Positions 669-29,936 of a stretch of DNA of 64,000 bases are shown piece after piece (positions within the stretch are counted from its first letter, which is position 1; every line of letters starts with the position of its first letter). The stretch is from contig NZ_CP114286.1 in the NCBI RefSeq assembly GCF_027111275.1, forward strand, positions 1,178,001 through 1,242,000, written 5' to 3'. Position numbers and translations under genes: made by a program. The DNA is from Flavobacterium luteolum (lineage in GTDB: Bacteria; Bacteroidota; Bacteroidia; Flavobacteriales; Flavobacteriaceae). The notes beneath the pieces are model-generated. The model did no database searches. It had not been told where the DNA came from and was given only the letters and a program-made list of their open reading frames with translations.

Positions 669-725
669 AATTAGATAATGTCCCAATTTGATAATTAGAT
701 AATTTTGAAAATGTGACAATTAAAT
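669..725. repeat. 8-nt-period array, AATTAGAT family
   Basis: Units begin with AAT or AATT at 669, 677, 685, 693, 701, 710 and 718, that is six steps of 8 and one of 9. Typical units are AATTAGAT and AATTTGAT. The same family recurs around the terminator at 1422-1461. It is not coding, because an 8-nt period breaks every reading frame. Confidence 0.75.
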
Positions 726-736
726 ATATTTTTTTT

Positions 737-823
737 GCCACAGATTAAAGGATTTTCACTGATTATTTTTTTTACTGAGAATACATATTCTAAAAAAATC
801 TTTTTAATCTTTTAATCTGTGGC
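737..823. repeat. Long inverted repeat, CACAGATT family
   Basis: Left arm GCCACAGATTAAAGGATT (737-754) is nearly complementary to the right arm ending at 823 (AATCTTTTAATCTGTGGC, 806-823). Inside the arms the GATT/AATC cores recur every 8-9 nt. The same arm sequence recurs at 9848-9874 and 10179-10206. Confidence 0.8.
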
Positions 824-921
824 AAAAAAAAAGAAGCTTGATTGATTTTTAAAGCTGCTCAGATTTTCCAATTTCAAAATTTTAATCTTACCTTGTATAA
901 TAATTTAAAAATCAGCAAAAT

Positions 922-1365
922 ATGAGAACGAAATTAAAACTGACCGTCTACTTAATTGCAGGATTACTATTTGGACTCACTGCAAATGCTCAAAAAACCG
1001 TAATTAAGAAGGAAGCTTTACCAGGAAATGCACAAACCTTCCTAAAAACACATTTCGGATCGAAAAAGCCAAGCTACATATTAGAAGACAAAGAAATTCT
1101 TTCTACAGAGTACAAAGTACAATATGACAACAAAATTGAAATTGAATTTGACAAGAAAGGAAACTGGAAAGAAGTAGATGCTAAAACTGGAAAAATTCCA
1201 AAATCTATTATTCCTAAAAAAATTGCTTCTTATATAAAATCAAATTTTCCCAAAGAAGATGTAACCAAAATCGAACTTGGAAGTTCTGGCTACGAAACAA
1301 AATTAACCAATGGTTTAGAATTAAAATTCAATTTAAAAGGAGATTTTATTAAGATTGACAAATAA
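922..1365 (+). CDS. Secreted PepSY-like protein
   Basis: Small exported protein of 147 residues. A signal peptide is obvious: basic MRTKLK, a hydrophobic stretch to about residue 20, then LTANA-Q as cleavage site. The mature part has two similar alpha/beta repeats (about 25-85 and 90-147), each with a segment like YKVQYDNKIEIEFDKKGNWK, the pattern of the periplasmic PepSY-like (DUF2874) family common in Bacteroidota. The molecular role of that family is not established; a binding or inhibitor role in the envelope is only an inference. It stands alone and ends in a strong terminator shared with the convergent GlmU-like gene. The ATG at 922 is the only start that keeps the signal peptide. Confidence 0.8.
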   Translation: MRTKLKLTVYLIAGLLFGLTANAQKTVIKKEALPGNAQTFLKTHFGSKKPSYILEDKEILSTEYKVQYDNKIEIEFDKKGNWKEVDAKTGKIPKSIIPKKIASYIKSNFPKEDVTKIELGSSGYETKLTNGLELKFNLKGDFIKIDK

Positions 1366-1369
1366 GTAT

Positions 1370-1495
1370 AATTAGGAAATGTGTCAATTAGGAAATTAGA
1401 AAATTCTCAAAACCATAAAATAACAAAACCCGACAGTTTTTAAAAACCTGTCGGGTTTGTTATAACTATCTAATTTTCAAATTGACTAATTATCT
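1370..1495. repeat. Octamer arrays flanking a terminator between convergent genes
   Basis: Left arm units start at 1370, 1378, 1386, 1394 and 1402 (AATTAGGA, AATGTGTC and similar). Right arm units start at 1464, 1472, 1480 and 1488 (AACTATCT, AATTTTCA and similar). Both arms have an exact 8-nt period and are inverted relative to each other, enclosing the terminator at 1422-1461. Confidence 0.75.
1422..1461. terminator. Bidirectional intrinsic terminator
   Basis: ACCCGACAG and CTGTCGGGT form a GC-rich stem flanked by A- and T-rich tracts. It serves the PepSY-like gene on the plus strand and the GlmU-like gene on the minus strand. Confidence 0.85.
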
Positions 1496-1497
1496 CA

Positions 1498-2673
1498 TTA
1501 ATCTTTTCTCCATTTTTTAGTTTCTTCGAAAATATGCTCCATAATTGCAGCTTCCGTTGCGTCGAACTCTATATTTCTTCGGCTCATCACTAACCTTGCT
1601 GTTTCAAAAGCTTTCTTAGTTACATAAGTCGTAAATCCTGCAGCGCCCCCCCAAGAAAAACTTGGAACAAAATTGCGAGGAAATCCACTTCCAAAAATAT
1701 TAGCACTTACACCAACCACTGTTCCCGTATTAAACATGGTATTGATTCCGCATTTACTGTGATCTCCCATCATTAAACCGCAAAACTGAAGTCCCGTTTT
1801 AGCAAAACCTTCTGTTTCGTAACTCCATAATTTCACTTCTTCGTAGTTGTTTTTTAGGTTTGAGTTATTAGAATCTGCTCCAATATTACACCATTCACCT
1901 AAAACAGAATCCCCTAAGAATCCTTCATGTCCTTTATTTGAATTTGCAAAAAGAACTGAATTTTTAACCTCGCCTCCTATTCTAGATCCAGGCCCAACAG
2001 TTGTTGCTCCATAAACTTTGGCTGACATTTTTACCATTGCATTTTCACACAAAGCGAATGGTCCGCGAATTACGGTTCCTTCCATAATTTCGGCATTTTT
2101 ACCTATATATATAGGACCAGTTGATGCATTTAAAGTTACAAACTCTAGTTTTGCTCCTTCTTCAATAAAAATATTTTCTGGCGAAATTACATTTACGCTT
2201 TTTGGAATAGGCTGCGATGTACGATCTTCAGTTAGATATTTAAAATCCTGACGAATTGCTGCATCATTTTTAGAGAAAATATCCCAAGTATGCTCTATTG
2301 TAATACAATCTTCATTGTACTGAATAATTTCATAAGAATCAAAATCGACTTCTTCCTGATTCTCGTTCGTAAAAAATGCTATTACATCTTCTCCTTTAAA
2401 AATCGCTTGGTTTTCAGTTAAATTAGAAACCATTTCAGCAAGAGTATCATTTGGCAAATACGCTGCGTTGATCATAACGTTTTCTTCCATTTCAACCATT
2501 GGAAATTTTTCAGACAAATATTCTTCGGTTATAGTAGTGATTGTAGAACCTAAATATTTTTCCCATTTCTGGCGGATTGTCATAATTCCAACCAAAATAT
2601 CCGCTACTGGTCTTGTAAAAGTAAAGGGTAATAAAGCATTCCGAACGGGGCCGTCGAAAAGAATGTAGTTCAT
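1498..2673 (-). CDS. GlmU-like sugar-phosphate nucleotidyltransferase/acyltransferase
   Basis: 391-residue protein of the Bacteroidota GlmU-like family: an N-terminal nucleotidyltransferase-like domain (MNYILFDG, FTRPVADILVGI near residues 18-30) followed by a left-handed beta-helix with hexapeptide repeats (about 170-340, for example GPIYIGKNAEIMEGTVIRGP). This domain order suggests synthesis of an activated sugar, such as a UDP-sugar for the envelope, but the classical N-terminal signature of GlmU is weak and the substrate cannot be read from the sequence. It is a single gene with its own TAACTTTG box 45 nt upstream. ATG at 2673 fits the family's N-terminus. Confidence 0.8.
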   Translation of the reverse strand: MNYILFDGPVRNALLPFTFTRPVADILVGIMTIRQKWEKYLGSTITTITEEYLSEKFPMVEMEENVMINAAYLPNDTLAEMVSNLTENQAIFKGEDVIAFFTNENQEEVDFDSYEIIQYNEDCITIEHTWDIFSKNDAAIRQDFKYLTEDRTSQPIPKSVNVISPENIFIEEGAKLEFVTLNASTGPIYIGKNAEIMEGTVIRGPFALCENAMVKMSAKVYGATTVGPGSRIGGEVKNSVLFANSNKGHEGFLGDSVLGEWCNIGADSNNSNLKNNYEEVKLWSYETEGFAKTGLQFCGLMMGDHSKCGINTMFNTGTVVGVSANIFGSGFPRNFVPSFSWGGAAGFTTYVTKKAFETARLVMSRRNIEFDATEAAIMEHIFEETKKWRKD

Positions 2674-2717
2674 AAATAATTGAGTGTTTGTTAAAATTTG
2701 ATTTGGTTACCTGGCTT

Positions 2718-2725
2718 CAAAGTTA
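2718..2725 (-). promoter_or_regulatory. -7 box of the GlmU-like gene
   Basis: TAACTTTG on the minus strand matches the Bacteroidota TAnnTTTG element. Transcription would start near 2712, leaving a leader of about 39 nt. No clear -33 TTG is seen. Confidence 0.55.
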
Positions 2726-2819
2726 CAAATATTTATGTGTTTGATTAAAAGTACTCTCATTCAAAATAAGAAAATAATTGCTTTTTGGCTAACATTTTTT
2801 TTTATATCGATAATCATTT

Positions 2820-2958
2820 AACCGCAAAGTGCGCAAAGTTTATATTATCAAGTTTTTATAAAAAATAAAGTTCGCAAAGATTTGTACAGATGCTAACTTT
2901 GCGAACTTTGTGTTTTCTAAACATAATGTCAGGTAAAATCTTTGCGCACTTTGCGGTT
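2820..2958. repeat. Nested inverted repeat, GCAAAG family
   Basis: The outer arms are a perfect 19-bp match: AACCGCAAAGTGCGCAAAG at 2820-2838 and its complement at 2940-2958. An inner pair, AAAGTTCGCAAAG near 2867-2879 and CTTTGCGAACTTT at 2897-2909, repeats the same GCAAAG core. The cores are 8-9 nt apart. Confidence 0.85.
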
Positions 2959-2978
2959 AGATTTTACAATTCCATAAA

Positions 2979-3006
2979 AAAAGCCTTCCAGAATTGGAAG
3001 GCTTTT
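2979..3006 (-). terminator. Terminator of rpmE2
   Basis: AAGCCTTCCA, loop GAAT, TGGAAGGCTT with A/T tracts on both sides, 20 nt after the rpmE2 stop. Confidence 0.85.
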
Positions 3007-3025
3007 GTATAATTTAAAACAGCTA

Positions 3026-3280
3026 TTATTTTTTAGCGTGTTTAGCATATTTAGTTTTGAATTTATCAATACGTCCTGCAGTATCGATAAGTTTAGATTT
3101 ACCAGTATAAAAAGGGTGAGATGTTCTAGAAATCTCCATTTTTACAACTGGATACTCAACTCCGTCAACTTCAATTGTTTCTTTTGTATCTGCAGTAGAT
3201 TTAGTGATAAAAACCTCATCATTCGACATGTCTTTAAATGCAACTAATCTGTAATTTTCTGGGTGAATTCCTTTTTTCAT
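3026..3280 (-). CDS. rpmE2: 50S ribosomal protein L31 type B
   Basis: 84-residue ribosomal protein of the large subunit, where L31 helps bridge the two subunits. It begins [17 protein letters not shown] and contains [20 protein letters not shown], the C-terminal signature of type B L31. It lacks the CxxC zinc motifs of type A L31, so it is the zinc-independent form; no second L31 gene is in the window. It is monocistronic, with its own promoter (3397-3426) and terminator. Confidence 0.97.
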
Positions 3281-3396
3281 CTTTTCTTTTATTTATTGTT
3301 TGGAGCACTTTTATTTTGAAGCTTTTTCATGGTTAGAAAAAGGTGTAAACAAATAATACTCTTTTTTGTTTAAAAATTTAATTATTTTTGAGTGTG

Positions 3397-3426
3397 CAAA
3401 TTTACAATTCTTTTTTAATAAACAAA
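3397..3426 (-). promoter_or_regulatory. Promoter of rpmE2
   Basis: On the minus strand, TTTG (3426-3423) is followed after 18 nt by TAAATTTG (3404-3397), a good Bacteroidota promoter. The leader would be about 110 nt, long enough for translational autocontrol, though I recognise no specific leader structure. Confidence 0.7.
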
Positions 3427-3494
3427 CAGTTAGCCTACTTTTTTTTAGTTTATTTCGAAAAGCTTTTTTTATATCCGATTATAGTGGGAATTAC

Positions 3495-3502
3495 TATATT
3501 TG
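3495..3502 (+). promoter_or_regulatory. -7 box of the DUF4199/glycosyltransferase operon
   Basis: TATATTTG 26 nt before the ATG at 3529; transcription start expected near 3508. Confidence 0.6.
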
Positions 3503-3528
3503 TGGATTAATTTTAAACATATCGAAAT

Positions 3529-4059
3529 ATGATTAATGAAGTTATAAAAAAGAACGGTATTACGTATGGTGTAATGATCGGAATTGCGTCGGCTTTGGTT
3601 ACTGCTACGATCTATGCTGTTGATTTAAACTTATTTACAGCTTGGTGGATGGGAATAATAGGAATCGTAATAAGTCTTACACTTAGTATTATTTTACTTT
3701 CTAAAACCAAAAGAGATTTAAACGGTGTTTTTCCTTTTAAAGACGCTTTTACTACTTATTTTATAGCGGCAGTAATTGGTATTTTAATATCTACAACTTT
3801 TAACATTGTATTGTTTAATGTAATTGATCCAGGTGCAAAAGATACTTTGAGCGAAATTATGATCAAATATACTATTGGTATGATGCAGAAATTTGGCGCA
3901 CCAGCCGCTTCTATTAATGAAGCTGTTGCCAAAATGAAAGAAAGCAATCCGTATTCTACTTTTGAATTATTAAAAGGATCAGTTTTTGCAATGGTTGTAA
4001 GCGCTATTTTCGGATTAATTTTCGCAGCATTTTTTAAAAGCAAATCTACACAAGAATAA
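3529..4059 (+). CDS. DUF4199 family membrane protein
   Basis: 176-residue inner-membrane protein with four hydrophobic segments (about 14-32, 38-58, 76-97 and 148-168), matching the DUF4199 family that is widespread in Bacteroidota. The function is unknown. It lies 8 bp upstream of a polyprenyl-phosphate-type glycosyltransferase and shares its promoter. The pair is recurrent in flavobacteria as far as I know, so a role as partner of the glycosyltransferase or in lipid-linked sugar handling is a reasonable inference, not shown by sequence. Confidence 0.8.
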   Translation: MINEVIKKNGITYGVMIGIASALVTATIYAVDLNLFTAWWMGIIGIVISLTLSIILLSKTKRDLNGVFPFKDAFTTYFIAAVIGILISTTFNIVLFNVIDPGAKDTLSEIMIKYTIGMMQKFGAPAASINEAVAKMKESNPYSTFELLKGSVFAMVVSAIFGLIFAAFFKSKSTQE

Positions 4060-4067
4060 AAATATAA

Positions 4068-5024
4068 ATGAATTTATCTATACTTATACCGCTTCTAAAC
4101 GAGGAGGAATCACTTAAAGAACTCTACACATGGATCATTAAAGTGATGCAGTCTAACAATTACTCTTATGAAATCATTTTTGTAGATGATGGTAGTACAG
4201 ATAATTCTTGGCAGATTATTGAAGGTTTCTCTAACGAAAATCCAAATGTAAAAGGAATTCGTTTCATGAAAAACTTCGGAAAATCTCAAGCTTTGCATGC
4301 TGGTTTTGCAAAAGCAAAAGGCGATGTTATTATTACAATGGATGCCGACTTGCAAGATAGTCCAGACGAAATTCCAGAATTGTATGAAATGATTACAGCT
4401 CAGAAATACGATTTGGTTTCAGGCTGGAAAAAGAAACGTTACGATTCTGTTGTAGCCAAAAATCTTCCTTCAAAATTATTTAACTGGGCAGCCAGAAAAA
4501 CTTCTGGTGTTGAGCTAAATGATTTTAACTGCGGATTAAAAGCCTACAAAAATGTTGTAGTCAAAAACATTGAAGTTTCTGGCGAAATGCACCGCTATAT
4601 TCCAGTTTTGGCTAAAAATGCTGGATTCGGAAAAATTGGAGAAAAAGTGGTAATTCACCAAGCTAGAAAATATGGTGAGACTAAATTTGGAATGGAGCGT
4701 TTTATAAACGGTTTTCTAGATTTAATTACTATCTGGTTTTTGTCAAGATTCGGAAAAAGACCAATGCACTTATTTGGCGCTATGGGCTCCTTAATGTTTA
4801 TTATAGGATTTTTAGCAGCTGGATATATTGGAGTTTCTAAACTATACCATATGTATACTGGAATGAAATACAGTCTGGTTACCAATAATCCATGGTTTTA
4901 TATTGCTTTAACTACTATGGTTCTTGGAACTCAGTTATTTCTAGCAGGATTCTTGGGTGAAATTATTTTAAGAACAAAAAATAACGAAGCAAGATATAAA
5001 GTAGCAAGAGAGGTTAATTTTTAA
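4068..5024 (+). CDS. Family 2 glycosyltransferase, DPM/ArnC-like
   Basis: 318-residue membrane-bound family 2 glycosyltransferase. The N-terminal catalytic domain shows VDDGSTDNSW (about 39-48) and the metal-binding ITMDADLQDSP (about 89-99). A conserved tail follows with GEMHRYIP and KFGMERFINGFLDL, and then two transmembrane helices (about 236-256 and 278-300). This layout is that of enzymes moving a sugar from a nucleotide donor onto undecaprenyl phosphate (DPM1, ArnC, GtrB relatives). The donor sugar is not deducible. It is the second gene of a two-gene operon with the DUF4199 protein. Confidence 0.9.
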   Translation: MNLSILIPLLNEEESLKELYTWIIKVMQSNNYSYEIIFVDDGSTDNSWQIIEGFSNENPNVKGIRFMKNFGKSQALHAGFAKAKGDVIITMDADLQDSPDEIPELYEMITAQKYDLVSGWKKKRYDSVVAKNLPSKLFNWAARKTSGVELNDFNCGLKAYKNVVVKNIEVSGEMHRYIPVLAKNAGFGKIGEKVVIHQARKYGETKFGMERFINGFLDLITIWFLSRFGKRPMHLFGAMGSLMFIIGFLAAGYIGVSKLYHMYTGMKYSLVTNNPWFYIALTTMVLGTQLFLAGFLGEIILRTKNNEARYKVAREVNF

Positions 5025-5146
5025 TTTTTTTTGTCTTTATGCAGTATTTTATAATCCGTTTTTAATTAAGGCATAAAAATATTGTATACAGCACCGTTAA
5101 CTCTCTGTAAAAATCTATTTTTAAATAAACAAAAACGAAATCAAAA

Positions 5147-6874: not shown

Positions 6875-6942
6875 ATAAACTCATTTTTTTAAAGTACAAC
6901 CATTTACAAATAGCCTTTAAAAAGCAATGAGTTCCAACATTT

Positions 6943-6990
6943 AAAACTCTGATTTGCATTTATTAAAGATGCAAAATCAGAGTTTTTTTT
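6943..6990 (+). terminator. Terminator after the phosphosugar mutase
   Basis: AAAACTCTGATTTGCAT pairs with ATGCAAAATCAGAGTTTT, followed by a run of T. Confidence 0.9.
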
Positions 6991-7011
6991 ATAAAAAAAA
7001 CCTAAAAGAAA

Positions 7012-7040
7012 TTGAAAATAATCCAATTGGATTATTTTTG
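7012..7040 (+). promoter_or_regulatory. Promoter with a 24-bp perfect palindrome in its spacer
   Basis: TTG (7012-7014) and TATTTTTG (7033-7040) are 18 nt apart, a standard Bacteroidota promoter for the ABC exporter at 7141. The 24 bases 7015-7038 are a perfect palindrome with half AAAATAATCCAA. It fills the spacer and overlaps the -7 box, as expected of a repressor operator. Confidence 0.6.
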
Positions 7041-7140
7041 TGCAGTAAAAATCCACCAAAAACGGATTCATCATAACAAAAAAATATTCCCAAAATTCGA
7101 AAGAACATTACCACAGCAAAAAAATAACATCCGAAAATAA

Positions 7141-9802: not shown

Positions 9803-10247
9803 AGTTGCTAAGGTTCTGAGAGGCTAAGATGCTAAGTTTTTTTTCTTGCCACAGATTAGAAGATTAAAAAGATTTTTTCAATATCTGATTATGTTCCGTA
9901 GGAACATTTCATCGGTAGAAAAAATTATATTGTTTTGGTTGATTTTACGTTCCATAGAAACGTTTGATTTCGATATATTTTTTTTAGCAATGCAACACTT
10001 CAAACGTTCCTACGGAACGAAAATTGATTGATCTTCATTTTTTTTCTACCAACCAGACATTCCTACGGAATGACGATTTGATGTATAAAAATGAAAAAAT
10101 GCTGTTTTCATTAATGAAAACAATTTAAAAAAAGAGAGGCTGTTTCAACTTATTGAAACAGCCTCTCTTTTTTTTTAAAATCCTTCTAATCCTTTTAATC
10201 TGTGGCAAAAAACTTAGAACCTTAGCCTCTCAGAACCTCAGAACCTT
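9803..10247. repeat. 445-bp nest of inverted repeats between convergent genes
   Basis: There are four layers from outside in. (1) CTAAG octamer arms, 9808-9839 and 10210-10241, 32 nt with about three mismatches. (2) CACAGATT arms, 9848-9874 and 10179-10206. (3) Inverted copies of an element with a 13-nt palindrome (GTTCC-GTA-GGAAC at 9893-9905, ATTCC-TAC-GGAAT at 10059-10071) followed by GGTAGAAAAAA, and a further GTTCC-TAC-GGAAC at 10006-10018. (4) Hairpins at 10103-10122 and 10131-10170. No gene is visible; a 61-codon open frame inside is repeat sequence. Confidence 0.85.
10131..10170. terminator. Bidirectional terminator inside the repeat nest
   Basis: AAAGAGAGGCTGTTTCAA pairs perfectly with TTGAAACAGCCTCTCTTT around a 4-nt loop, with A and T runs outside. 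It separates the convergent DUF2971 and lipoprotein genes. Confidence 0.9.
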
Positions 10248-15688: not shown

Positions 15689-15692
15689 TAAT

Positions 15693-22067: not shown

Positions 22068-22111
22068 AACTTGAATAACATTTTAAAATACCAATTTTTA
22101 AAAACCTTTTT

Positions 22112-22678: not shown

Positions 22679-22702
22679 AAGAATAATATCACATACTTTT
22701 AT

Positions 22703-22736
22703 AAAAACCGCTCTAATTATTAGTGCGGTTTTTTTA
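22703..22736 (+). terminator. Terminator of the third barrel gene
   Basis: AAAAACCGC and GCGGTTTTTTT around a 13-nt loop. Confidence 0.8.
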
Positions 22737-22814
22737 TTTTTACACTTATGTGTGAAATGTCATTTATGAAATGTAAAATGCATCACATTACTTAATTAAA
22801 AACGAAATTACTTT

Positions 22815-23228
22815 ATGAAAATCTGCATTATCAACGGACCAAATTTGAATCTTTTAGGAAAACGCGAACCAGAAGTTTACGGAAGCCAGACTTTTGAAGA
22901 TTATTTTGAAACGTTGAAACAAAAATTCCCAAACATCGAACTTTCTTATTACCAAAGCAATATTGAAGGCGAACTGATTGGTAAAATTCAAGAATGCGGT
23001 TTTACTTTCGACGGAATTATTCTGAATGCTGGCGCTTACACACACACCTCAATAGGTTTGGGCGATGCTATGAAAGCTGTTACAACTCCCGTAATTGAAG
23101 TGCACATTTCAAATACTTACGCGCGCGAAAGTTTTAGACATCAATCCTATTTATCTGGAAATGCTAAAGGCGTTATTTTAGGTTTCGGTCTAAAAAGTTA
23201 TGAATTGGCTATACAATCCTTTTTATAG
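22815..23228 (+). CDS. aroQ: 3-dehydroquinate dehydratase, type II
   Basis: 137-residue cytoplasmic enzyme of the shikimate pathway, removing water from 3-dehydroquinate to give 3-dehydroshikimate; active as a dodecamer. Type II signatures are complete: INGPNLNLLGKREPEVYG (about 4-21, with the lid Arg and catalytic Tyr), LNAGAYTHTSIGLGDAM (about 70-86) and EVHISNTYARESFRHQSYLS (about 95-114). No other shikimate gene is near. Followed by a dispersed repeat at 23234-23296. Confidence 0.97.
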   Translation: MKICIINGPNLNLLGKREPEVYGSQTFEDYFETLKQKFPNIELSYYQSNIEGELIGKIQECGFTFDGIILNAGAYTHTSIGLGDAMKAVTTPVIEVHISNTYARESFRHQSYLSGNAKGVILGFGLKSYELAIQSFL

Positions 23229-23233
23229 TATAA

Positions 23234-23296
23234 TGTCATTTTGAGCAAAGTCGAAGGCCTTTAAGACTACTGACTTCGACTTTCCTCAATCAGACA
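23234..23296. repeat. Dispersed inverted repeat, GTCATTTTGAGC family
   Basis: Left arm GTCATTTTGAGCAAAGTCGA is roughly complementary to ACTTCGACTTTCCTCAATCA on the right, making an imperfect hairpin of about 60 nt. A shorter relative (AGCGAAGTC) is at 25931-25955. I believe this family is widespread in Bacteroidota genomes. Confidence 0.6.
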
Positions 23297-23349
23297 AACT
23301 CTCTCATTCAATTTAACAAATTATTAATAAGCTCAGATTTAACTTATTA

Positions 23350-23357
23350 TATTTTTG
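23350..23357 (+). promoter_or_regulatory. -7 box of the DUF5686 gene
   Basis: TATTTTTG 18 nt before the ATG at 23376. Confidence 0.5.
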
Positions 23358-23375
23358 TAAGATAACCACACCTGT

Positions 23376-25865
23376 ATGAGAAACTATACTTTATTTGCCT
23401 TTCTATTTTTTTCGCTTTCCAATTTTGCTCAAATAAGAGGAACTGTAACAGATGATAAGGGAAATCCGCTTCCATTTGTGTCCGTTTTTGAAGAAAACAC
23501 CTATTCTGGAACTACCACAAACGAACAGGGAAAATATCAGCTGAATGTAAAAGAAGTTGGAAGAAACAAAATCACTTTTCAATATTTAGGCTATAAAACT
23601 CAAAAAATAACCGTCTTAGCAGCAACGAAAATTGTCAATTTAGATGTTAAACTCCAGGAAGAAAGTTTCGCATTAAATGAAGTTATAATTGATCCTAAAA
23701 ACAATCCCGCAAACGACATCATAAAAAGTGCTATTGCGCATAAGAAAGAAAATCTAGGTAAAACAGGACGTTATACAGCCGATTTTTATTCAAAAGGAAT
23801 GTTTAAAGTAAAAGATCTTCCAAAAAAAATCCTCGGTAAAAAAGTAGAACTTGGTAATGATATGGGCGCAAATTTAGATTCTACAGGAACGGGTATTTTA
23901 TATTTGTCTGAAACTGTTTCAAAAGTTGCTCTTGAAAAACCAGACAAACTAAAAGAAAAAATTATTGCTTCAAAAATTTCTGGCAACAATCGAGGCTACA
24001 GCTATAACACGGCTGCCCTATCTAATTATGACTTCTACGACAACACTTTAGATTTTGATGTAAAACTCATCTCTCCTATTGCCGACAATGCTTTCAATTA
24101 TTACAAATACAAACTGGAAAGCACTTTTTATGATGACAATAACCAGCAGATTAATAAAATAAAAGTTATTCCGAGACGAGATAAAGAACCTGTTTTTGAA
24201 GGCTATATTTATATTGTAGACGACAGTTTTGCTATTTATGCCGTTGATTTAGATATCAAAGGGTATCGAATGAAAAATGAATTTACAGAAGTAATGAATC
24301 TAAAACAGAGTTTTAGATTCATTACTAAAAATAAAATCTGGTCTAAAAATGCACAGACTCTGTCTTTTAATGCCGGTATTTTTGGAATAAAGTTTTCTGG
24401 AAATTTCAATTATGTTTATTCTAATTATGAATTTCCTGATGCTTTCGACAAGAAAACTTTCGGAAATGAACTTGTAGCTTTTGAACTTAATGCCAACAAA
24501 AAAGATGATGCTTTCTGGAATGAAATCCGTCCCATTCCGTTAACAATTGAAGAAAGTAATGATTATGCTAAAAAAGACAGTTTGCAAACCATTAGAAAAT
24601 CAAAAAAATATACCGATTCTATTGATGCCAAAAACAATAAGTTTAAGGTTTGGGATATTTTAATGGGTTACGATTATAAAAATACTTTTAAGAAATATTC
24701 TTTTGATTATAAAGGTTTATTGAATGTTGCTTCTTTAAGTTTTAATACTGTGCAAGGTTTTAATTTGGATTCGGGTTTCTCTTTCAGAAAATGGGATGAA
24801 GAAAAAGGAACAAACACTTCTATAAGCACAACTTTTAACTATGGTTTTTCAGACGAACGCTTTCGCGTAATTGGCGAATTCAGCCATCGATTCAATACTA
24901 TAAATTATGCGACAGTTTGGGGTTCGGGAGGAACAAAAACGGCTCAGTTTAATAGTGCCGAACCTATTTCTAAACTGATCAACTCTGTAAGCTCCTTATT
25001 TTTTAAAGACAATTATATGAAGTTGTACAACTTGGAATTTGTTGAAATCAATTATGGGCAAGATATTGCAAATGGAATGAATCTTACGGGAAAAATTGGC
25101 TACGAACAACGAAAACCACTTTTCAACACAACTGATTATTCTTTCTTTAAAAAAGATGATGTTTATTCCTCTAATAATCCCTTGGCTCCAGACGATTTTA
25201 CAACACCTGCTTTTAATCAGCATCATTTGTTTAAAGCTCTTATAACAACTAGAATCAATTTTGGCAACAAATACATTTCTAGACCTGACGGAAGATTTAA
25301 TTTCAAAAACGATAAATACCCGACGGTTTACCTAGCTTTTGAAAAAACATTCGCAGCGAGCGAAAAAAAGTATGAATATGAAAGAATTGGAGCTTCTGTT
25401 CAATATGATTTATCACTTGGAAACAAAGGTCTTTTAGGAACCAATTTTAGAGGTGGAAAATTCTTTAACGCCGAAAACATTTCCTTTATAGATTACAGAC
25501 ATTTTAACGGAAACCAAACTCATATTGGAACAAGTGAACGTTATTTGAATGTTTTCAACATGATGCCGTATTATTCTAACAGCACAAACGATAGCTACTT
25601 TGAAATGCATACAGAATACAATGACACAGGTTTTATCATGAATAAAATTCCGTTACTAAATCTTTTAAAGTCAACTATGAATATTGGCTTTCATTCCCTT
25701 GCGATTCCAGATCGAAAACCATACTCTGAATTCACTATTGGTTTAGATAATTTAGGTTTTGGTAAATTCAAATTATTCCGAGTGGATTATGTGCATTCTT
25801 ACCAAGGCGGCATCCAACAAAATGGTGTTGTATTTGGATTGAAGATTTTGAATGCGTTGGATTAA
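23376..25865 (+). CDS. Outer-membrane DUF5686 protein with carboxypeptidase-regulatory-like domain
   Basis: 829-residue exported protein: signal peptide to about residue 18 (LSNFAQ), a CarboxypepD-regulatory-like beta sandwich (about 20-105; GTVTDDKGNPLPFVSVFEE), then a long DUF5686 region that reads as a beta-barrel to the C-terminus. It looks like a TonB receptor without plug, so it is not itself a receptor of the usual kind. The family is widespread in Bacteroidota; the substrate is unknown. It is monocistronic, and the 3' end runs into the octamer array flanking the next terminator. Confidence 0.85.
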   Translation: MRNYTLFAFLFFSLSNFAQIRGTVTDDKGNPLPFVSVFEENTYSGTTTNEQGKYQLNVKEVGRNKITFQYLGYKTQKITVLAATKIVNLDVKLQEESFALNEVIIDPKNNPANDIIKSAIAHKKENLGKTGRYTADFYSKGMFKVKDLPKKILGKKVELGNDMGANLDSTGTGILYLSETVSKVALEKPDKLKEKIIASKISGNNRGYSYNTAALSNYDFYDNTLDFDVKLISPIADNAFNYYKYKLESTFYDDNNQQINKIKVIPRRDKEPVFEGYIYIVDDSFAIYAVDLDIKGYRMKNEFTEVMNLKQSFRFITKNKIWSKNAQTLSFNAGIFGIKFSGNFNYVYSNYEFPDAFDKKTFGNELVAFELNANKKDDAFWNEIRPIPLTIEESNDYAKKDSLQTIRKSKKYTDSIDAKNNKFKVWDILMGYDYKNTFKKYSFDYKGLLNVASLSFNTVQGFNLDSGFSFRKWDEEKGTNTSISTTFNYGFSDERFRVIGEFSHRFNTINYATVWGSGGTKTAQFNSAEPISKLINSVSSLFFKDNYMKLYNLEFVEINYGQDIANGMNLTGKIGYEQRKPLFNTTDYSFFKKDDVYSSNNPLAPDDFTTPAFNQHHLFKALITTRINFGNKYISRPDGRFNFKNDKYPTVYLAFEKTFAASEKKYEYERIGASVQYDLSLGNKGLLGTNFRGGKFFNAENISFIDYRHFNGNQTHIGTSERYLNVFNMMPYYSNSTNDSYFEMHTEYNDTGFIMNKIPLLNLLKSTMNIGFHSLAIPDRKPYSEFTIGLDNLGFGKFKLFRVDYVHSYQGGIQQNGVVFGLKILNALD

Positions 25866-26118
25866 TAAGATACTAAGGTTCTGAGATGCTAAGATTCTAA
25901 GTTTTCTTTTAGTACTTAATAGTATTTTTTACCCGGCTAAGCGAAGTCAAAACCCAAGTGTAGCTTTTTAAACTTCAAAAAAAACTGCTTGATTTACAAT
26001 CTGGTTTCAATTAGATTGTAAATCAAGCAGTTTTTTAAATTAATCTTTGTCAAAGTTTAAAACTTTGACAAAGAAAAAAAACTTAGAATCTTAGCATCTC
26101 AGAACCTTAGAACCTCTT
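25866..26118. repeat. Perfect 32-bp inverted octamer arms enclosing two hairpins
   Basis: The left arm 25873-25904 (units CTAAGGTT, CTGAGATG and two more) is an exact reverse complement of 26079-26110. Between them lie a strong terminator (25981-26036) and a second hairpin (26045-26073, CTTTGTCAAAGTTT and complement). The genes on either side converge, as at 1370-1495 and 9803-10247. Confidence 0.9.
25981..26036. terminator. Bidirectional terminator with a 22-bp stem
   Basis: AAAACTGCTTGATTTACAA and the complement ending in AAGCAGTTTTTT; the loop is about 8-10 nt. Confidence 0.9.
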
Positions 26119-26994
26119 TCAATGATAATCATCTGGCTCTATATGAATCAAAACATTTCCTAACTGTGGAATTTGTTCTTTCAATTTATCTTGCAGTTTA
26201 TGAGATAAATCATGACCTTCTTTTACAGAAATTTTAGCCGAAACTATGGCGTGAAGATCAACATGATAACGCATTCCTGCTTTTCGGATATAGCATTTTT
26301 CTGTTCCAAGAATTCCTGGAACTGTCAAAGCAACGATTCGGATTTCTTCTACTAAATCATCGTTTAGGTTTTCATCCATGATTTCGCCAAGTGCAGGTCT
26401 GAAAATTTTGTAGCTGTTATATAAAATGAAAAAAGCCGCAAATAGTGCTGCCCAGTCATCAGCAGATTCGTAGCCTTTCCCCATGACCAAAGCAATGGAA
26501 ATTCCGATAAAAGCTGCTACAGAAGTTATAGCATCGCTTCTATGGTGCCATGCATCGGCTGCCAAAGAAGAACTATTGGTTTGTCGGCTACGTTTCATTA
26601 CCAAGCGAAAAGAATATTCTTTCCAGATAATAATTGCACCTAAAACATACAAAGTCCAAGATTTAGGTAAATCGTGTGAAGTTCCAATATTGGCGATACT
26701 TTCATAACCAATAATTGTTGCCGAAGTAATTAAGAACCCAACAACCAAAAAGGTAATTAGAGGTTCTGCACGGCCGTGACCGTAAGGATGATTTTCATCT
26801 GCCGGTTTATTCGAATATTTAATTCCAAACAGTACCAAAAATGACGCAAATATATCCGTCGTTGATTCAATTGCGTCAGCAATTAAGGCATAAGAATTGC
26901 CAAAAAAACCTGCGAGACCTTTTATAAGGGCCAGGCAGGTATTTCCTATTATACTAAAAATAGTAGCTTTTACAGCTTTTTGTTCGTTTGTCAT
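26119..26994 (-). CDS. Cation diffusion facilitator family transporter
   Basis: 291-residue inner-membrane metal efflux protein (Zn, Fe, Mn or Co) driven by proton exchange. Six membrane helices occupy about 1-200. Metal-site residues are seen in ALIADAIESTTD (helix 2) and SLAADAWHHRSDAITS (helix 5), and NHPYGHGRAEPL is the conserved His-rich turn after helix 2. The cytoplasmic ferredoxin-like tail (about 205-291) ends in HIEPDDYH. Metal preference cannot be read safely: helix 2 has D..D and helix 5 has H-H-x-x-D. Its stop is at the end of the 26 kb repeat nest. Confidence 0.9.
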   Translation of the reverse strand: MTNEQKAVKATIFSIIGNTCLALIKGLAGFFGNSYALIADAIESTTDIFASFLVLFGIKYSNKPADENHPYGHGRAEPLITFLVVGFLITSATIIGYESIANIGTSHDLPKSWTLYVLGAIIIWKEYSFRLVMKRSRQTNSSSLAADAWHHRSDAITSVAAFIGISIALVMGKGYESADDWAALFAAFFILYNSYKIFRPALGEIMDENLNDDLVEEIRIVALTVPGILGTEKCYIRKAGMRYHVDLHAIVSAKISVKEGHDLSHKLQDKLKEQIPQLGNVLIHIEPDDYH

Positions 26995-27011
26995 TTAAAG
27001 ACATTTTTTTA

Positions 27012-27123
27012 GCCACGAATTCACGAATTAAACGAAATTTAGAATTTATCTAATTTCTCTAATTTTTAAAATGAAATTAGTTTAATTTGACTTTAAAAAT
27101 TTTGAATTAGTTTAATTCGTGGC
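27012..27123. repeat. Inverted repeat, CACGAATT family
   Basis: GCCACGAATT at 27012-27021 is the reverse complement of AATTCGTGGC near 27114-27123, and pairing continues inward with interruptions. Left-arm units CACGAATT start at 27014 and 27022, then AAACGAAA at 27030: an 8-nt period. Confidence 0.8.
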
Positions 27124-27133
27124 AAATATTTTT

Positions 27134-28447
27134 TTAAGCTCTCACGATTTTTGCGCCGATTGCTCTTAAACGCTCATCTATACGCTCGTATCCACGATCG
27201 ATTTGCTCGATATTTTGAATTGTACTTGTTCCTTTTGCAGAAAGCGCAGCAATTAATAATGAGATTCCCGCACGAATATCAGGAGAAGACATTGTTGTTG
27301 CTTTTAATTGAGATTCAAAATTATGTCCCATAACCACGGCTCTGTGCGGATCACATAACATAATTTTCGCGCCCATGTCTATTAATTTATCCACGAAGAA
27401 TAAACGGCTTTCGAACATTTTTTGGTGAATTAAAACATCTCCTTTAGCTTGAGTTGCTACAACCAAAACAATACTTAACAAATCAGGCGTAAATCCAGGC
27501 CATGGAGCATCAGCAATTGTTAAAATAGAACCGTCGATATCAGTTTTTACTTCATACCCGTCTTTGTGAGCAGGAATATAAATATCATCATTACGTTTTT
27601 CAACTGTAATTCCTAGCTTTCTAAACGTATTCGGAATCAAACCTAAGTTTTCCCAGCTTACGTTTTTGATTGTAATTTCGCTTTTTGTCATAGCCGCAAG
27701 ACCAATCCAAGAACCAATTTCGATCATATCAGGAAGAATTCTGTGCTCACAACCTCCAAGACTTTCAACACCTTCGATAGTCAATAAGTTAGACCCAACT
27801 CCTGTGATTTTAGCTCCCATCGAGTTCAGCATTTTACATAACTGCTGTAAGTATGGCTCGCAAGCTGCGTTGTAAACTGTAGTTGTTCCTTTTGCTAAAA
27901 CAGCAGCCATCACAATATTTGCAGTTCCAGTTACAGACGCTTCATCCAAAAGCATATCTGTCCCTTTAAGACCTTCCTTAGGAGTTTCTACTCCATAAAA
28001 GTGATCTTCTCTGTTGTATCTAAATTTTGCACCAAGGTTAATAAAACCTTCAAAGTGAGTATCTAATCTACGACGTCCAATTTTATCTCCTCCAGGTTTT
28101 GGAATATATCCTTTTCCAAAACGAGCCAAAAGCGGACCAACAATCATAATCGAACCACGAAGCGCTCCTCCTTCTTTCTTGAAAGCTTCAGTTTCTAAAT
28201 ATCCAACATTAACTTCATCTGCTTGAAAAGTAATTGAACCTGGTTCGTTACGTTGAATTTTCACCCCTAAATTCCCCAACAAAGTGATTAATTTATTGAT
28301 GTCTATAATATCAGGAATGTTATTAATTTTTACTTTCTCTCCTGTTAGAAGCACGGCACATAAAATTTGTAATGCCTCATTCTTTGCTCCTTGTGGAGTG
28401 ATTTCTCCTTTTAAAGGAGTTCCTCCTTCGATTTTAAAAATTCCCAT
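27134..28447 (-). CDS. murA: UDP-N-acetylglucosamine 1-carboxyvinyltransferase (MurA) with Asp in place of the active-site Cys
   Basis: 437-residue cytoplasmic enzyme for the first committed step of peptidoglycan synthesis: enolpyruvyl transfer from phosphoenolpyruvate to UDP-GlcNAc. The family is clear from GEITPQGAKNEALQILCA (about 14-31), GPLLARFGKGYIPKPGGDKIG (split at 104-124), the later DMIEIGSWIG and SPDIRAGISLLIAALSAKG. In the active loop, Escherichia coli has PGGC (Cys115); this protein has PGGD, Asp at residue 121 (codon at 28085-28087). Asp here is known in other bacteria to keep activity but block covalent attack by fosfomycin. It is the last gene of the DUF493-DUF4290-murA cluster, separated from DUF4290 by repeats. 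Confidence 0.96.
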   Translation of the reverse strand: MGIFKIEGGTPLKGEITPQGAKNEALQILCAVLLTGEKVKINNIPDIIDINKLITLLGNLGVKIQRNEPGSITFQADEVNVGYLETEAFKKEGGALRGSIMIVGPLLARFGKGYIPKPGGDKIGRRRLDTHFEGFINLGAKFRYNREDHFYGVETPKEGLKGTDMLLDEASVTGTANIVMAAVLAKGTTTVYNAACEPYLQQLCKMLNSMGAKITGVGSNLLTIEGVESLGGCEHRILPDMIEIGSWIGLAAMTKSEITIKNVSWENLGLIPNTFRKLGITVEKRNDDIYIPAHKDGYEVKTDIDGSILTIADAPWPGFTPDLLSIVLVVATQAKGDVLIHQKMFESRLFFVDKLIDMGAKIMLCDPHRAVVMGHNFESQLKATTMSSPDIRAGISLLIAALSAKGTSTIQNIEQIDRGYERIDERLRAIGAKIVRA

Positions 28448-28475
28448 AGATCTTGTTTAGGTTCTTTCAAAGTTT

Positions 28476-28648
28476 CTAAGATTCTGAGATTCTAAGATTC
28501 TAAGTAAAAAAACTCAGCAACTTAGTAGCTTAGCAGCTTAGCAGCTTTTTTTTATTTTTGTTTTTGTTTATTTTTTAAGCATCTAAGTAAAAAAAACTTA
28601 GCAACCTAGTCCCGATAGCTATCGGGATAGCCTCTTAGTAGCTTTTTT
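28476..28648. repeat. Octamer arrays, CTAAG/CTTAG family, with TCCCGATAGCTATCGGGA palindrome
   Basis: Units CTAAGATT, CTGAGATT, then two more CTAAG units start at 28476, 28484, 28492 and 28500. Opposite-sense units (CTCAGCAA, CTTAGTAG and two CTTAGCAG) start at 28513, 28521, 28529 and 28537. Both have an exact period of 8. A second pair of arrays follows, with the perfect 18-bp palindrome TCCCGATAGCTATCGGGA at 28610-28627 inserted in it. It fills the 201-bp space between DUF4290 and murA. Confidence 0.85.
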
Positions 28649-29374
28649 TTACTTTTGATTATTATTTTTTTGAAATGTCTTTTTTTGACCGCCTTTGTTG
28701 TTGTTATTTTTGTTGTTCTGAATTTTTGGCTGTGCACCAGAAGCTGTTTTATTAGACATGCGTTTGTTTGTACGCATTAAGTCTGTTGTATTTAAAAGCT
28801 CTTCTGTGCTGTGTAATAAATTGATTTTACCTACAGATAATTCATATAAATGTTCAAAAATCACATCATCTTTTACGGTGTCTTTGTTCCAGCTTAAGAA
28901 AGATTTTTTCATGTGGTTGGCAATTACCATTACCAATGCATTTTTCATTTCGCCTTCTTCCCATTTATTGGCAACATCAATCATATATTTGATATTGTTA
29001 CCATAAAATCTATACTTTGGAAAGTTCTGTGGATACTGTAAAACATCTGGTTTTAACTCCAAAACTTCTCTTGACGGAATTGGATACGGAGATTCTACAT
29101 TCAATTTAAAATCAGACATAATAAAAAGCTGATCCCAAAGTTTATGCTGAAAATCTGGCACGTCACGCAAATGCGGATTCAGACTTCCCATAACCTGAAT
29201 GATATATTTTGCGGCTTTATTGCGCGTTTCATCATCTTCGATTGCAGTTGCCTGATCAATCAGTTTTTGTAAATGGCGACCATATTCTGGGATAATCAAA
29301 CGTTGTCTTTCAGAATTGTATTCTAAATTATACACAACGTCGCTTGCTGCTTCTCTTTTATATTTTTCGATCAT
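28649..29374 (-). CDS. DUF4290 domain protein
   Basis: 241-residue cytoplasmic protein of the DUF4290 family, which is restricted to Bacteroidota as far as I know. The body is helical (LNPHLRDVPDFQHKLWDQLFIMSDF near 70-95 is typical), and the C-terminal 30 residues are a low-complexity Lys/Asn/Gln tail. The function is unknown. It begins 4 bp after the DUF493 gene and precedes murA, an arrangement conserved in flavobacteria, so a link to envelope growth is possible but not shown. Confidence 0.88.
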   Translation of the reverse strand: MIEKYKREAASDVVYNLEYNSERQRLIIPEYGRHLQKLIDQATAIEDDETRNKAAKYIIQVMGSLNPHLRDVPDFQHKLWDQLFIMSDFKLNVESPYPIPSREVLELKPDVLQYPQNFPKYRFYGNNIKYMIDVANKWEEGEMKNALVMVIANHMKKSFLSWNKDTVKDDVIFEHLYELSVGKINLLHSTEELLNTTDLMRTNKRMSNKTASGAQPKIQNNKNNNNKGGQKKTFQKNNNQK

Positions 29375-29378
29375 AAGT

Positions 29379-29675
29379 TTATAATGAAACTATACCTTCA
29401 ATTGTAGAAACTTCTTTGTATTTACTAATCACATCGTCTGAGCTGTGCATCGTAACGTCTACAGAAACACTGGTAAATTTACCTGTTTTAGATTTTGTTG
29501 TTTTAATTACCGCACCCATTCGATCAAAAGCTTTTTCGACACGTTCTACATTGTCTGCTACAGAAGGCACAATAAATTTGTATAAATATTCTGCTGGCCA
29601 AGTATTTGCGTTATCTAGCTCTACTTTTAATCTTTCGTAAAATTCGGCGGTATTTTTTTCTTTATCGTTCTCCAT
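29379..29675 (-). CDS. DUF493 domain protein (YbeD-like)
   Basis: 98-residue small alpha/beta protein of the DUF493/YbeD family, ferredoxin-like fold (FYERLKVELDNANTWPAEYLYKFIVP, then a beta strand KFTSVSVDVTM). The family resembles allosteric ACT-type domains; no ligand is known. First gene of the DUF493-DUF4290-murA unit, with a TATATTTG box at 29695-29702. Confidence 0.88.
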   Translation of the reverse strand: MENDKEKNTAEFYERLKVELDNANTWPAEYLYKFIVPSVADNVERVEKAFDRMGAVIKTTKSKTGKFTSVSVDVTMHSSDDVISKYKEVSTIEGIVSL

Positions 29676-29694
29676 TCGTAATTAAAAATAAACG

Positions 29695-29702
29695 CAAATA
29701 TA
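29695..29702 (-). promoter_or_regulatory. -7 box of the DUF493-DUF4290-murA unit
   Basis: TATATTTG on the minus strand, 19 nt before the ATG at 29675, giving a very short leader. Confidence 0.55.
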
Positions 29703-29772
29703 CGGTTTTGATTTTAGACTTTTGAGTTTAGATTTTAGATTTTTTTGGGGCTTAAAACTTTGTTTTAAAGGA

Positions 29773-29936
29773 ACAAAGTTACAAAGGTGTAAAGGTGCAG
29801 AGAAAAAAGCAATCGAAGATTATTTCTTTGTAAAATTTACTGCTATATTTGAGAAAATAATCTGCCGAAATCTCTCGCAAAGTCGCAAAGAGATTTCTTT
29901 AAGTTTAAAACTTTGCGTCTTAGCGACTTTGCGAGA
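29773..29936. repeat. Octamer arrays, ACAAAGGT and GCAAAGTC families
   Basis: ACAAAGTT, ACAAAGGT and two related units start at 29773, 29781, 29789 and 29797. Separately, CTCGCAAA and GTCGCAAA (29874-29889) oppose CTTTGCGT, CTTAGCGA and CTTTGCGA (29911-29934) as an inverted pair. All steps are exactly 8 nt. An open frame over this stretch has no protein-like composition and is not called. Confidence 0.85.

What the first reader, a model, noticed from the sequence alone, without database searches (positions are those of the whole stretch)
669..29936. At least six unrelated intergenic repeat families share an 8-nt period
By direct reading, arrays with cores AATTAGAT (669-725, 1370-1409, 1464-1495), CACAGATT (737-823, 9850-9874), CTAAGATT (9808-9839, 25873-25904, 28476-28544), GCAAAGTC (29874-29934), ACAAAGGT (29773-29804) and CACGAATT (27014-27037) all step by 8 nt, with occasional 9. 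The sequences are unrelated, but the period and the inverted-arm layout are common. An 8-nt period fits neither codons nor the helix turn, so a shared generating or binding mechanism is implied. I recall similar strings in other Flavobacterium genomes, but I do not know a name or function.
Basis: partly seen in the sequence, partly recalled or inferred. Interest (0 to 1): 0.75.

Follow-up and report, generated by a model that had tools for sequence, protein, structure and literature searches.

The report
Repeat-ended hairpin elements with small genes
The odd eight-letter repeats between genes look like the mirrored ends of a small, apparently mobile DNA element; fuller copies carry one small gene between the ends, and in other bacteria copies sit inside the coding sequence of another gene, so an overlooked class of mobile DNA may be at hand.

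Summary
The periodicity is real: in a 20 x 20-kb sample of this genome, intergenic autocorrelation from lag 3 to 18 peaks only at 6-9 (lag 8, z 10.2) and 16. The period is 7, 8 or 9 by family. Most window arrays are inverted hairpin arms, some nested. By reading, all 8 four-helix-bundle (4HB) genes (PF05635, the '23S rRNA intervening sequence protein' family) and both full-length GxxExxY nuclease genes here lie between such arms, each with its own word. I read the window arrays as gene-less copies. Arm words track the encoded protein at unrelated loci; sites are gained, lost and replaced between species; 4HB genes beside 7-nt arrays occur in about a dozen phyla; in a methyltransferase gene the element replaces surface-loop codons in frame, with empty alleles known. 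Proposal: iteron-ended mobile elements recognised by their own protein. Not shown: transposition, target duplication, binding. About half of the elements fail my automatic tests; outside Bacteroidota the arrays are strong, but inverted arms pass in only 11 of 89. No reverse transcriptase was found here; several carriers lack a Y1 transposase match.

The parts
669..725 (.). AATTAGAT-type array (strongest 685-704); same word type as the arms of the 4HB element L007 elsewhere in this genome
729..754 (+). left arm, GCCACAGATT hairpin
   Evidence: 26 nt, 96% complementary to 806-831; same word as the arms of the GxxExxY element L010
806..831 (-). right arm, GCCACAGATT hairpin
1368..1412 (+). left arm, AATTAGGA/AATTAGAA array
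   Evidence: pairs with 1457-1493, 74% complementary; region folds with z -7.1
1426..1458 (.). inner terminator-like hairpin nested in the loop of the AATTAGGA pair
   Evidence: 16 nt arms, 94% complementary
1457..1493 (-). right arm, AATTAGGA type (weak array by itself)
9803..9842 (+). outer left arm, CTAAGGTT/CTAAGATG array
   Evidence: 40 nt, 88% complementary to 10207-10246
9842..9877 (+). inner left arm, GCCACAGATT type (weak array by itself)
   Evidence: 36 nt, 78% complementary to 10177-10212; adjacent to and inside the outer pair
9894..10070 (.). innermost inverted repeat (TTCCGTAGGAA/TTCCTACGGAA), a third type nested inside
   Evidence: arms 9894-9924 and 10040-10070, 81% complementary
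10177..10212 (-). inner right arm, GCCACAGATT type
10207..10246 (-). outer right arm, CTAAG type
25868..25909 (+). left arm, CTAAGATT array
   Evidence: 42 nt, 93% complementary to 26074-26115; region folds with z -16.8
25979..26036 (.). perfect 24-nt inverted repeat nested in the loop of the CTAAG pair
26074..26115 (-). right arm, CTAAGATT array
27009..27047 (+). left arm, GCCACGAATT type, between the cation-efflux gene and murA
   Evidence: presence varies at the orthologous junction
27096..27126 (-). right arm, GCCACGAATT type
28465..28504 (+). left arm, CTAAGATT array
28512..28547 (-). right arm: same CTAAG core, different spacers
   Evidence: relation read by eye; one search lists no inverted repeat here
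28580..28640 (.). second CTAAG hairpin, with the palindrome TCCCGATAGCTATCGGGA (28610-28627) in its right arm
   Evidence: by eye; palindrome core
   Evidence: score 16
29767..29804 (.). ACAAAGGT array, no clear partner
29873..29891 (+). left arm, TCGCAAAG hairpin
   Evidence: 19 nt, 95% complementary to 29918-29936; resembles the arms of the GxxExxY element L009
29918..29936 (-). right arm, TCGCAAAG hairpin

Best explanation
The arrays are the ends of a class of small mobile elements. A complete element is: 5' arm of about 4-5 iterons (a 4-5-nt core plus variable nt, period 7-9) - one small gene - 3' arm carrying the same word inverted. The gene encodes either a four-helix-bundle protein (PF05635/TIGR02436) or a GxxExxY PD-(D/E)XK protein (PF13366/TIGR04256). 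The window's arrays are copies that lack the gene. Shown: this anatomy, by reading, at 10 of 10 such genes here; word-protein coupling; a preferred polarity; presence/absence and replacement at orthologous sites; nesting; in-frame placement in a methyltransferase gene with empty alleles. Inferred: the element's own protein recognises the iterons at the DNA level. For the 4HB type, a pentameric ring with one iteron per subunit would explain about 4.5 units per array and the constant spacing; for the GxxExxY type, the nuclease would cut. Gene-less copies would be mobilised in trans. Insertion seems to replace a tolerated loop (short intergenic spacer, loop of another hairpin, surface-loop codons), as described for intervening sequences that replace rRNA tetraloops. 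How the DNA is copied and joined is unknown; a reverse transcriptase is not needed in the host and a Y1 transposase probably is not.
For: Own genome: 8 of 8 PF05635 genes and both full-length PF13366 genes between inverted arrays by eye; 7 of these 10 pass the automatic inverted-arm threshold. 140 distinct elements of Bacteroidota genomes: inverted arms beyond 99% of shuffles in 44 of 99 4HB and 17 of 41 GxxExxY against 8 of 116 small genes of this genome; arrays scoring >=11 in 50 of 99, 8 of 41, 10 of 116, and 4 of 420 shuffles. Polarity: 5' arm G>C in 37, C>G in 3 of 44 4HB elements and 11 against 4 of 17 GxxExxY; 90 against 12 of 126 distinct 4HB words, other phyla included. Arm similarity rises with protein identity across loci without homologous neighbours (Mantel r 0.116 4HB, 0.345 GxxExxY, 0 of 2000 permutations each). 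At the ndpA junction 18 elements carry CTAAG or CAAAG cores, mostly the same in both arms; own partners match better than partners of other species (0 of 5000). 30 gene-less arrays match this genome's own elements (mean 17.5) better than any of 200 draws of ten composition-matched elements of other genomes (mean 11.7, max 13.5). Orthologous sites. Other phyla and plasmids: 54 of 89 with arrays scoring >=12, 52 of period 7, against 1 of 445 shuffles. In-gene copies and empty alleles. Units per detected array: median 4.6 (period 7), 4.4 (period 8); 2GSC and 2RLD have 5 chains each; S23p of Xanthomonas is called a toroidal homopentamer in PMC4990558 (introduction). D67, E77, K79 in 40 of 40 GxxExxY proteins (one of 41 was lost by a duplicate name).
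Against: No transposition, excision or target-site duplication was seen. 55 of 99 4HB and 24 of 41 GxxExxY elements lack significant inverted arms by score; in the set of other phyla and plasmids only 11 of 89 pass, partly because shuffles of such repetitive flanks raise the threshold to 28, so the inverted layout is not established there. GxxExxY arrays are weak (8 of 41). 11 of 30 gene-less arrays do not match an own element beyond shuffles. Carriers need not be rich in arrays (G058 and G162: none in 80 kb each). At the ndpA site the own partner is the single best match for only 4 of 18, and L172 has a CAAAG-type protein with CTAAG arms. The word-protein correlation is small for 4HB and rests on few close pairs (16 above 60% identity, 3 of them with excess >=6); opposite polarity also rises at the top (0.98 against 3.54 for 4HB, 2.73 against 5.17 for GxxExxY). 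Polarity counts include related loci and some coding flank. The unit count is conditioned on a score threshold that hides short arrays; some arrays have 9-20 units. A.C mismatches exceed G.U between arms, which I cannot explain.
Confidence: 0.65

Rival explanations
1. RNA hairpins kept for their transcript structure: bidirectional terminators or processing stems, unrelated to mobility.
For: Several hairpins are flanked by T and A runs like bidirectional terminators (729-831); seven regions fold better than shuffles (z -2.1 to -16.8); several lie between convergent genes.
Against: If RNA pairing were selected, G.U pairs should exceed A.C mismatches between arms; they do not (4HB 103 GT against 139 AC in 82 elements; GxxExxY 23 against 44 in 19). 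Arms at 28465-28547 share the core but hardly pair. Some lie between divergent genes (729-831, 29873-29936) or inside coding genes.
Confidence: 0.13
2. Binding sites of a host nucleoid or global regulatory protein, as proposed for paired octa- and heptanucleotide arrays in Geobacter metallireducens (PMC2700814).
For: Similar anatomy is described there: four tandem octanucleotides GTTGCTYN, three TCTCCGTS[Y], or five heptanucleotides MTYCTGA, in pairs on opposite strands, for the first two at a distance called variable (passages read).
Against: This genome has at least ten words, one per element gene; words covary with the element protein; presence at orthologous sites is erratic. A single host protein would be expected to keep one word.
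Confidence: 0.07
3. Hairpins and genes are separate: arrays arise by slippage or another process, and 4HB or GxxExxY genes are passengers that home into hairpin loops.
For: Nesting of unrelated hairpins in the window, different hairpins at one site, and the tetraloop replacement described for rRNA intervening sequences all fit loop homing.
Against: Passengers would not carry their word between loci; word similarity follows protein identity at unrelated loci, though weakly for 4HB, and 4HB and GxxExxY genes tend to different word types.
Confidence: 0.15

Closest known systems
Intervening sequences (IVS) of bacterial 23S rRNA with an S23p ORF
   Same: Stem-loop bordered by complementary arms, in some cases with an ORF of the same protein family (PF05635); sporadic distribution; insertion replaces a small loop (PMC4990558 introduction).
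   Different: Not in rRNA: intergenic, or inside a methyltransferase gene. Arms are tandem 7-9-nt iterons with element-specific words. RNase III excision not tested; in the coding-gene case the host frame stays open through the element, so excision need not be assumed.
Paired octa-/heptanucleotide arrays of Geobacter metallireducens (PMC2700814)
   Same: Tandem 7-8-nt units in pairs on opposite strands, several word classes in one genome.
   Different: Read there as regulator-binding sites; in the passages I read no link to 4HB or GxxExxY genes is made.
Heptameric repeats of Xanthomonas (GGGAATC) and Nostoc (PMC4692102); TAACTGA repeats of Beggiatoaceae (PMC4679880)
   Same: Intergenic 7-nt arrays; in Xanthomonas some in convergent inverted pairs.
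   Different: Studied as G-quadruplexes or translational sites; no element gene is named in the passages I read. The solved 4HB 2GSC is named XCC0516, which I take from recall to be the Xanthomonas campestris protein, so its flanks are a direct test.
Rickettsia palindromic elements (RPE)
   Same: Palindromic inserts found in frame inside coding genes (as described in PMC3733652, passage read).
   Different: No iteron arms and no ORF as far as I recall; other sequence.
REP/BIME with RAYT (Y1) transposase
   Same: Small intergenic palindromes in many copies.
   Different: Several 4HB-rich genomes have no Y1_Tnp match (G088 with 9, G061 with 6, G143 with 5 4HB genes).
Diversity-generating retroelements (Avd)
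   Same: Avd is a distant relative of the 4HB protein (NF033474 E 1.5e-6, below cut-off; bAvd PF22296 E 8.3e-8, below cut-off).
   Different: No reverse transcriptase match in this genome.

Membership tests
23S rRNA IVS | located in an rRNA gene | tested here: not met
   The 8 own 4HB loci lie between protein-coding sequence by reading. Rfam was run on the window only.
23S rRNA IVS | bordered by complementary sequences | tested here: met
   44 of 99 4HB elements beyond 99% of shuffles against 8 of 116 control genes; by eye in all 8 own ones; only 11 of 89 in the set of other phyla and plasmids
23S rRNA IVS | encodes S23p (PF05635) in the ORF-bearing form | tested here: met
   not for the GxxExxY type
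23S rRNA IVS | excised from RNA by RNase III | not testable with these tools
   -
REP/BIME-RAYT | Y1 transposase in the genome | tested here: not met
   4 in the own genome, but none in G088, G061, G143, G166, G189, G123, G197 and others that carry 4HB genes
REP/BIME-RAYT | GTAG or CGTC tag at the foot of the hairpin | not tested
   -
IS or MITE | terminal inverted repeats | tested here: met
   arms, but built of iterons; many elements miss the threshold
IS or MITE | target-site duplication | tested here: inconclusive
   filled and empty junctions read by eye are too diverged to define it
IS or MITE | encodes or is served by a known transposase | tested here: inconclusive
   the element genes tested match 4HB or GxxExxY families only; other transposases of the genome were not examined
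Diversity-generating retroelement | reverse transcriptase | tested here: not met
   0 RVT_1 candidates in the own genome; RT in 46 of 116 4HB genomes and 12 of 32 others, hand tally of the tables
Rickettsia palindromic element | in-frame insertion in coding genes | tested here: inconclusive
   met for the methyltransferase copies (sites A, C, D); not seen for elements of the window's genome, where only intergenic arrays were looked for

The most novel reading that the evidence does not exclude
A class of mobile elements without transposase or reverse transcriptase, spread over many bacterial phyla and perhaps archaea: a single small protein (a pentameric four-helix ring, or a PD-(D/E)XK nuclease) moves any sequence bracketed by inverted 7-9-nt iterons into tolerated loops of intergenic DNA, genes and rRNA. 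rRNA intervening sequences, the paired repeats of Geobacter, cyanobacterial and Xanthomonas heptamers and the Flavobacterium octamers would be members of this one class, each lineage having evolved its own recognition word.
Probability: 0.37. Interest if true: 0.92.

Novelty: new variant of a known kind. Interest (0 to 1): 0.8.

Why it matters
It gives an origin to an abundant, unexplained repeat type, and a context to two widespread small-protein families of unclear role (PF05635 in 60 of 61 genomes of this genus and 116 of 148 of the phylum; PF13366 in 51 of 99). It would link rRNA intervening sequences, called selfish in PMC4990558, to elements elsewhere in the genome. Word and protein seem to evolve together, so recognition specificity could be read from sequence. 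Because copies enter a coding gene in frame, it is also a source of new protein loops.

Tried and rejected
Retroelement: rejected as necessary, no RVT_1 match in this genome. RAYT: unlikely, several carriers lack Y1_Tnp. RNA-stem selection: no excess of G.U over A.C. Universal period 8: rejected. Horizontal transfer of the element itself from 60-78% identity across phyla: not claimed, because many of those loci share the same methyltransferase gene, which may be what travels. First flank statistics were discarded because loci of minus-strand matches were not turned; one search replaces them. Three loci cut by contig ends were dropped (L042, L060, L114). The first arm-protein test was replaced because an orthologue (L052) escaped the neighbour filter. 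Of 30 ndpA loci 11 were not read; of 30 murA loci 4 were not comparable by my reading. Of 91 loci from other phyla and plasmids 89 were scored; of 23 plasmid records 11 were fetched; the 80 loci are the best of 155. In-gene count: 34 of 89 and 4 of 140 have an open host frame of at least 40 codons on both sides, but long open frames are common in GC-rich DNA, so only the methyltransferase cases are relied on; 17 of 25 loci given to one search showed at least one host motif. Controls are imperfect: the 116 control genes come from this genome alone, itself rich in arrays; the 66 comparison elements include some of the same genus; three of the five genomes without PF05635 are GC-rich (0.53-0.60) and the samples of those five hold only 4.6-9.1 kb of intergenic DNA each. 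Target-site duplication: read by eye, undecided. PDB search with a GxxExxY protein: no match at 0.1. Phage records: no 4HB match. Literature: ten searches in an open-access library; none of the listings or passages seen connects 4HB or GxxExxY genes with these arrays; subscription papers were not searchable.
Full report
OBSERVATION. The window is part of a 5.36-Mb single-contig genome; the 60 other genomes searched as its genus are called Flavobacterium here after the finding and from recall. Intergenic autocorrelation against dinucleotide shuffles peaks at lag 8 only in the window (z 5.1) and at 6, 7, 8, 9 and 16 in a 400-kb sample; coding sequence shows the codon period. The pattern CTRAGNNNCTRAGNNNCTRAG has 167 forward and 188 reverse matches genome-wide (overlapping ones counted) against 40 and 2 for the pattern read backwards.

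ANATOMY. Most window arrays are inverted arms. Two regions are nested: at 9803-10247 a CTAAG pair (40 nt, 88% complementary) encloses an adjoining GCCACAGATT pair (36 nt, 78%), which encloses a third inverted repeat; at 25866-26118 a CTAAG pair (42 nt, 93%) encloses a perfect 24-nt one. A unit is a 4-5-nt core plus variable letters: on average 3.9 of 7 or 4.4 of 8 phases are at least 90% identical within an array. At 28465-28547 the two arms share the CTAAG core but not the spacers.

THE GENE BETWEEN THE ARMS. From a remembered association I searched the genome for PF05635 and PF13366. Eight PF05635 genes and two full-length PF13366 genes exist; by eye all ten lie between inverted arrays, each with its own word: CTAAGGTT, AGTCGAA, AAGAAGC, AATTGTT, AATTGTG, AATTATG, AATTAGAA, GATTTTT, GCAAAG/CGCTAAGG, CACAGATT. 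A third, partial PF13366 match (L011, in a 359-aa frame) has none. Seven of the ten also pass the automatic inverted-arm test. Words of the window recur here: AATTAGAT and CTAAGATT types with 4HB genes, CACAGATT and GCAAAG types with GxxExxY genes; ACAAAGGT and CACGAATT have no gene-bearing copy among these ten. Thirty gene-less arrays of the random sample match these ten elements better (mean 17.5) than any of 200 draws of ten composition-matched elements from other genomes of the phylum (mean 11.7, maximum 13.5); 19 of 30 individually beat shuffles.

SURVEY. PF05635 occurs in 60 of 61 genus genomes and 116 of 148 phylum genomes, PF13366 in 51 of 99. For 140 distinct elements the tests separate both families from 116 small genes of this genome and from shuffles, although more than half of the elements miss the inverted-arm threshold and half of the 4HB ones the array threshold. 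Strong 4HB arrays have period 7 or 8; strong GxxExxY arrays are few (8 of 41), 5 of them period 9. The 5' arm is usually the G-rich one: 37 to 3 of 44 4HB and 11 to 4 of 17 GxxExxY elements, and 90 to 12 of 126 distinct 4HB words (other phyla included). Detected arrays have a median of about 4.5 units, a figure that the score threshold influences.

COUPLING OF WORD AND PROTEIN. Among pairs at unrelated loci (no homologous neighbour), arm similarity above shuffle expectation grows with protein identity: 0.16 below 25% identity to 3.54 above 60% for 4HB (16 pairs), 5.17 above 60% for GxxExxY (43 pairs); Mantel r 0.116 and 0.345, 0 of 2000 permutations for each. Opposite polarity lies between -0.30 and 0.28 for 4HB up to 60% identity and is 0.98 above; for GxxExxY it reaches 2.73. 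At the junction upstream of ndpA 18 elements carry mostly CTAAG or mostly CAAAG cores, in both arms; own arms match better than arms swapped between species (21.4 against 15.6; 0 of 5000), although the own partner is the single best for only 4; 17 of 18 follow the protein subtype by my reading, L172 does not.

GAIN, LOSS, REPLACEMENT. At the murA/cation-efflux junction, by eye, 11 of 30 loci have the GCCACGAATT hairpin, 8 have no hairpin, 7 have a different one (ATCGTTTAAGTAAACC type), 4 are not comparable. At the ndpA junction 19 of 30 loci were read: 12 with a 4HB element (one with an internal stop), 1 decayed, 4 with a short gene-less AAGAGCC-type hairpin, 2 with a CCTCACCCC-type hairpin. 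The same site thus takes unrelated hairpins.

OTHER PHYLA AND GENES. A scan with one 4HB protein gave 80 loci whose titles span many phyla; with eleven plasmid loci, 89 were scored: 54 have arrays scoring at least 12, 52 of them of period 7 (shuffles 1 of 445). From the titles I place these arrays in about a dozen phyla (Cyanobacteria, Chloroflexota, Bacteroidota, Nitrospirota, Planctomycetes, Acidobacteria, Verrucomicrobia, Proteobacteria, Armatimonadota, Firmicutes, Omnitrophota, Gemmatimonadota and 'Deltaproteobacteria'); an ANME-1 archaeal contig scores 10.5, just below. Only 11 of 89 pass the inverted-arm test there. Three cyanobacterial plasmid copies lie between cas genes. Many loci share a DNA-methyltransferase gene (PF01555): the element sits inside it in another frame, and the host frame stays open through arms and 4HB gene. 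Ten homologues printed lack it and read FGEPDI-DILDADDGQI-QVKVNGVDVF (spelling varies slightly), while seven carriers have the element in place of the middle; the nearest empty homologue is 92% identical to the joined flanks of carrier P0068. Gene-less period-7 inserts sit at other loops of the same protein: 5 of 16 loci at site A, 6 of 9 at site C. In 22 in-gene copies the second 4HB codon position changes as often as the first (ratio 1.05 against 0.72 and 0.76 in two other sets), as expected if the host frame is also constrained; the in-gene pairs are more alike (67% against 45% and 49%), which may contribute.

MECHANISM. If RNA pairing were what selection keeps, G.U should exceed A.C among arm mismatches; the reverse is seen. 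What is kept is the word, in inverted orientation, so I favour DNA recognition of iterons by the element's own protein. The ring model rests on the unit count, on five chains each in 2GSC and 2RLD and on the published toroidal homopentamer; it is inference. GxxExxY proteins keep D, E and K of the PD-(D/E)XK motif in 40 of 40. No reverse transcriptase is needed and Y1 transposase matches are missing from several carriers. The chemistry of movement is unknown.

KNOWN WORK. Rows are in Closest known systems. Papers: PMC4990558 abstract and introduction; PMC2700814, PMC4679880, PMC4692102, PMC3733652, PMC5524665, PMC8934634 passages only; others only as listings. None of what I saw connects arrays and genes; the library is open-access only.

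OTHER GENOMES. In 80 kb from each of five genomes without PF05635, no segment had an array of 11 or more; among five further carriers G042 had 4, G036 6 (one a TTTG run), G010 1, G058 and G162 none. Three of the five non-carriers are GC-rich, so this contrast is only suggestive. The load of gene-less copies is lineage-specific, and the lag-8 excess is a trait of this genome rather than of the genus.

Noticed in passing
window 28610-28627; 67 sites genome-wide: Palindrome TCCCGATAGCTATCGGGA inside an array arm, and at a murA-site arm of another species (L124). Its core CCCGATAGCTATCGGG occurs at 67 places in this genome, the reversed control never. Looks like a second small inserted palindrome.
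   Followed up: partly
window 9894-10070: A different inverted repeat with TTCCTACGGAA cores, nested inside two other hairpins.
   Followed up: no
L218, L223, L226 (cyanobacterial plasmids): 4HB genes beside 7-nt (L218, L223) or 8-nt (L226) arrays lie between cas6 and cas4 or between cas10 and cmr3.
   Followed up: no
L133, L134, L137, L138, L140, L142, L143 near murA: Another hairpin (ATCGTTTAAGTAAACC...GGTTTACTTAAACGAT type) at the site that holds the CACGAATT hairpin in other species.
   Followed up: no
L166, L170 (ndpA junction); L239, L252 (methyltransferase site B): Other insert families (CCTCACCCC...; peptides SPARGEGEKRA, HAREGGHP...RVRGND) use the same permissive sites.
   Followed up: no
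window 31185-31264 +: Rfam Flavo-1 RNA, 80 bits.
   Followed up: no
arms of 82 4HB and 19 GxxExxY elements: A.C mismatches between the two arms exceed G.T ones (139 to 103; 44 to 23); I have no explanation.
   Followed up: no
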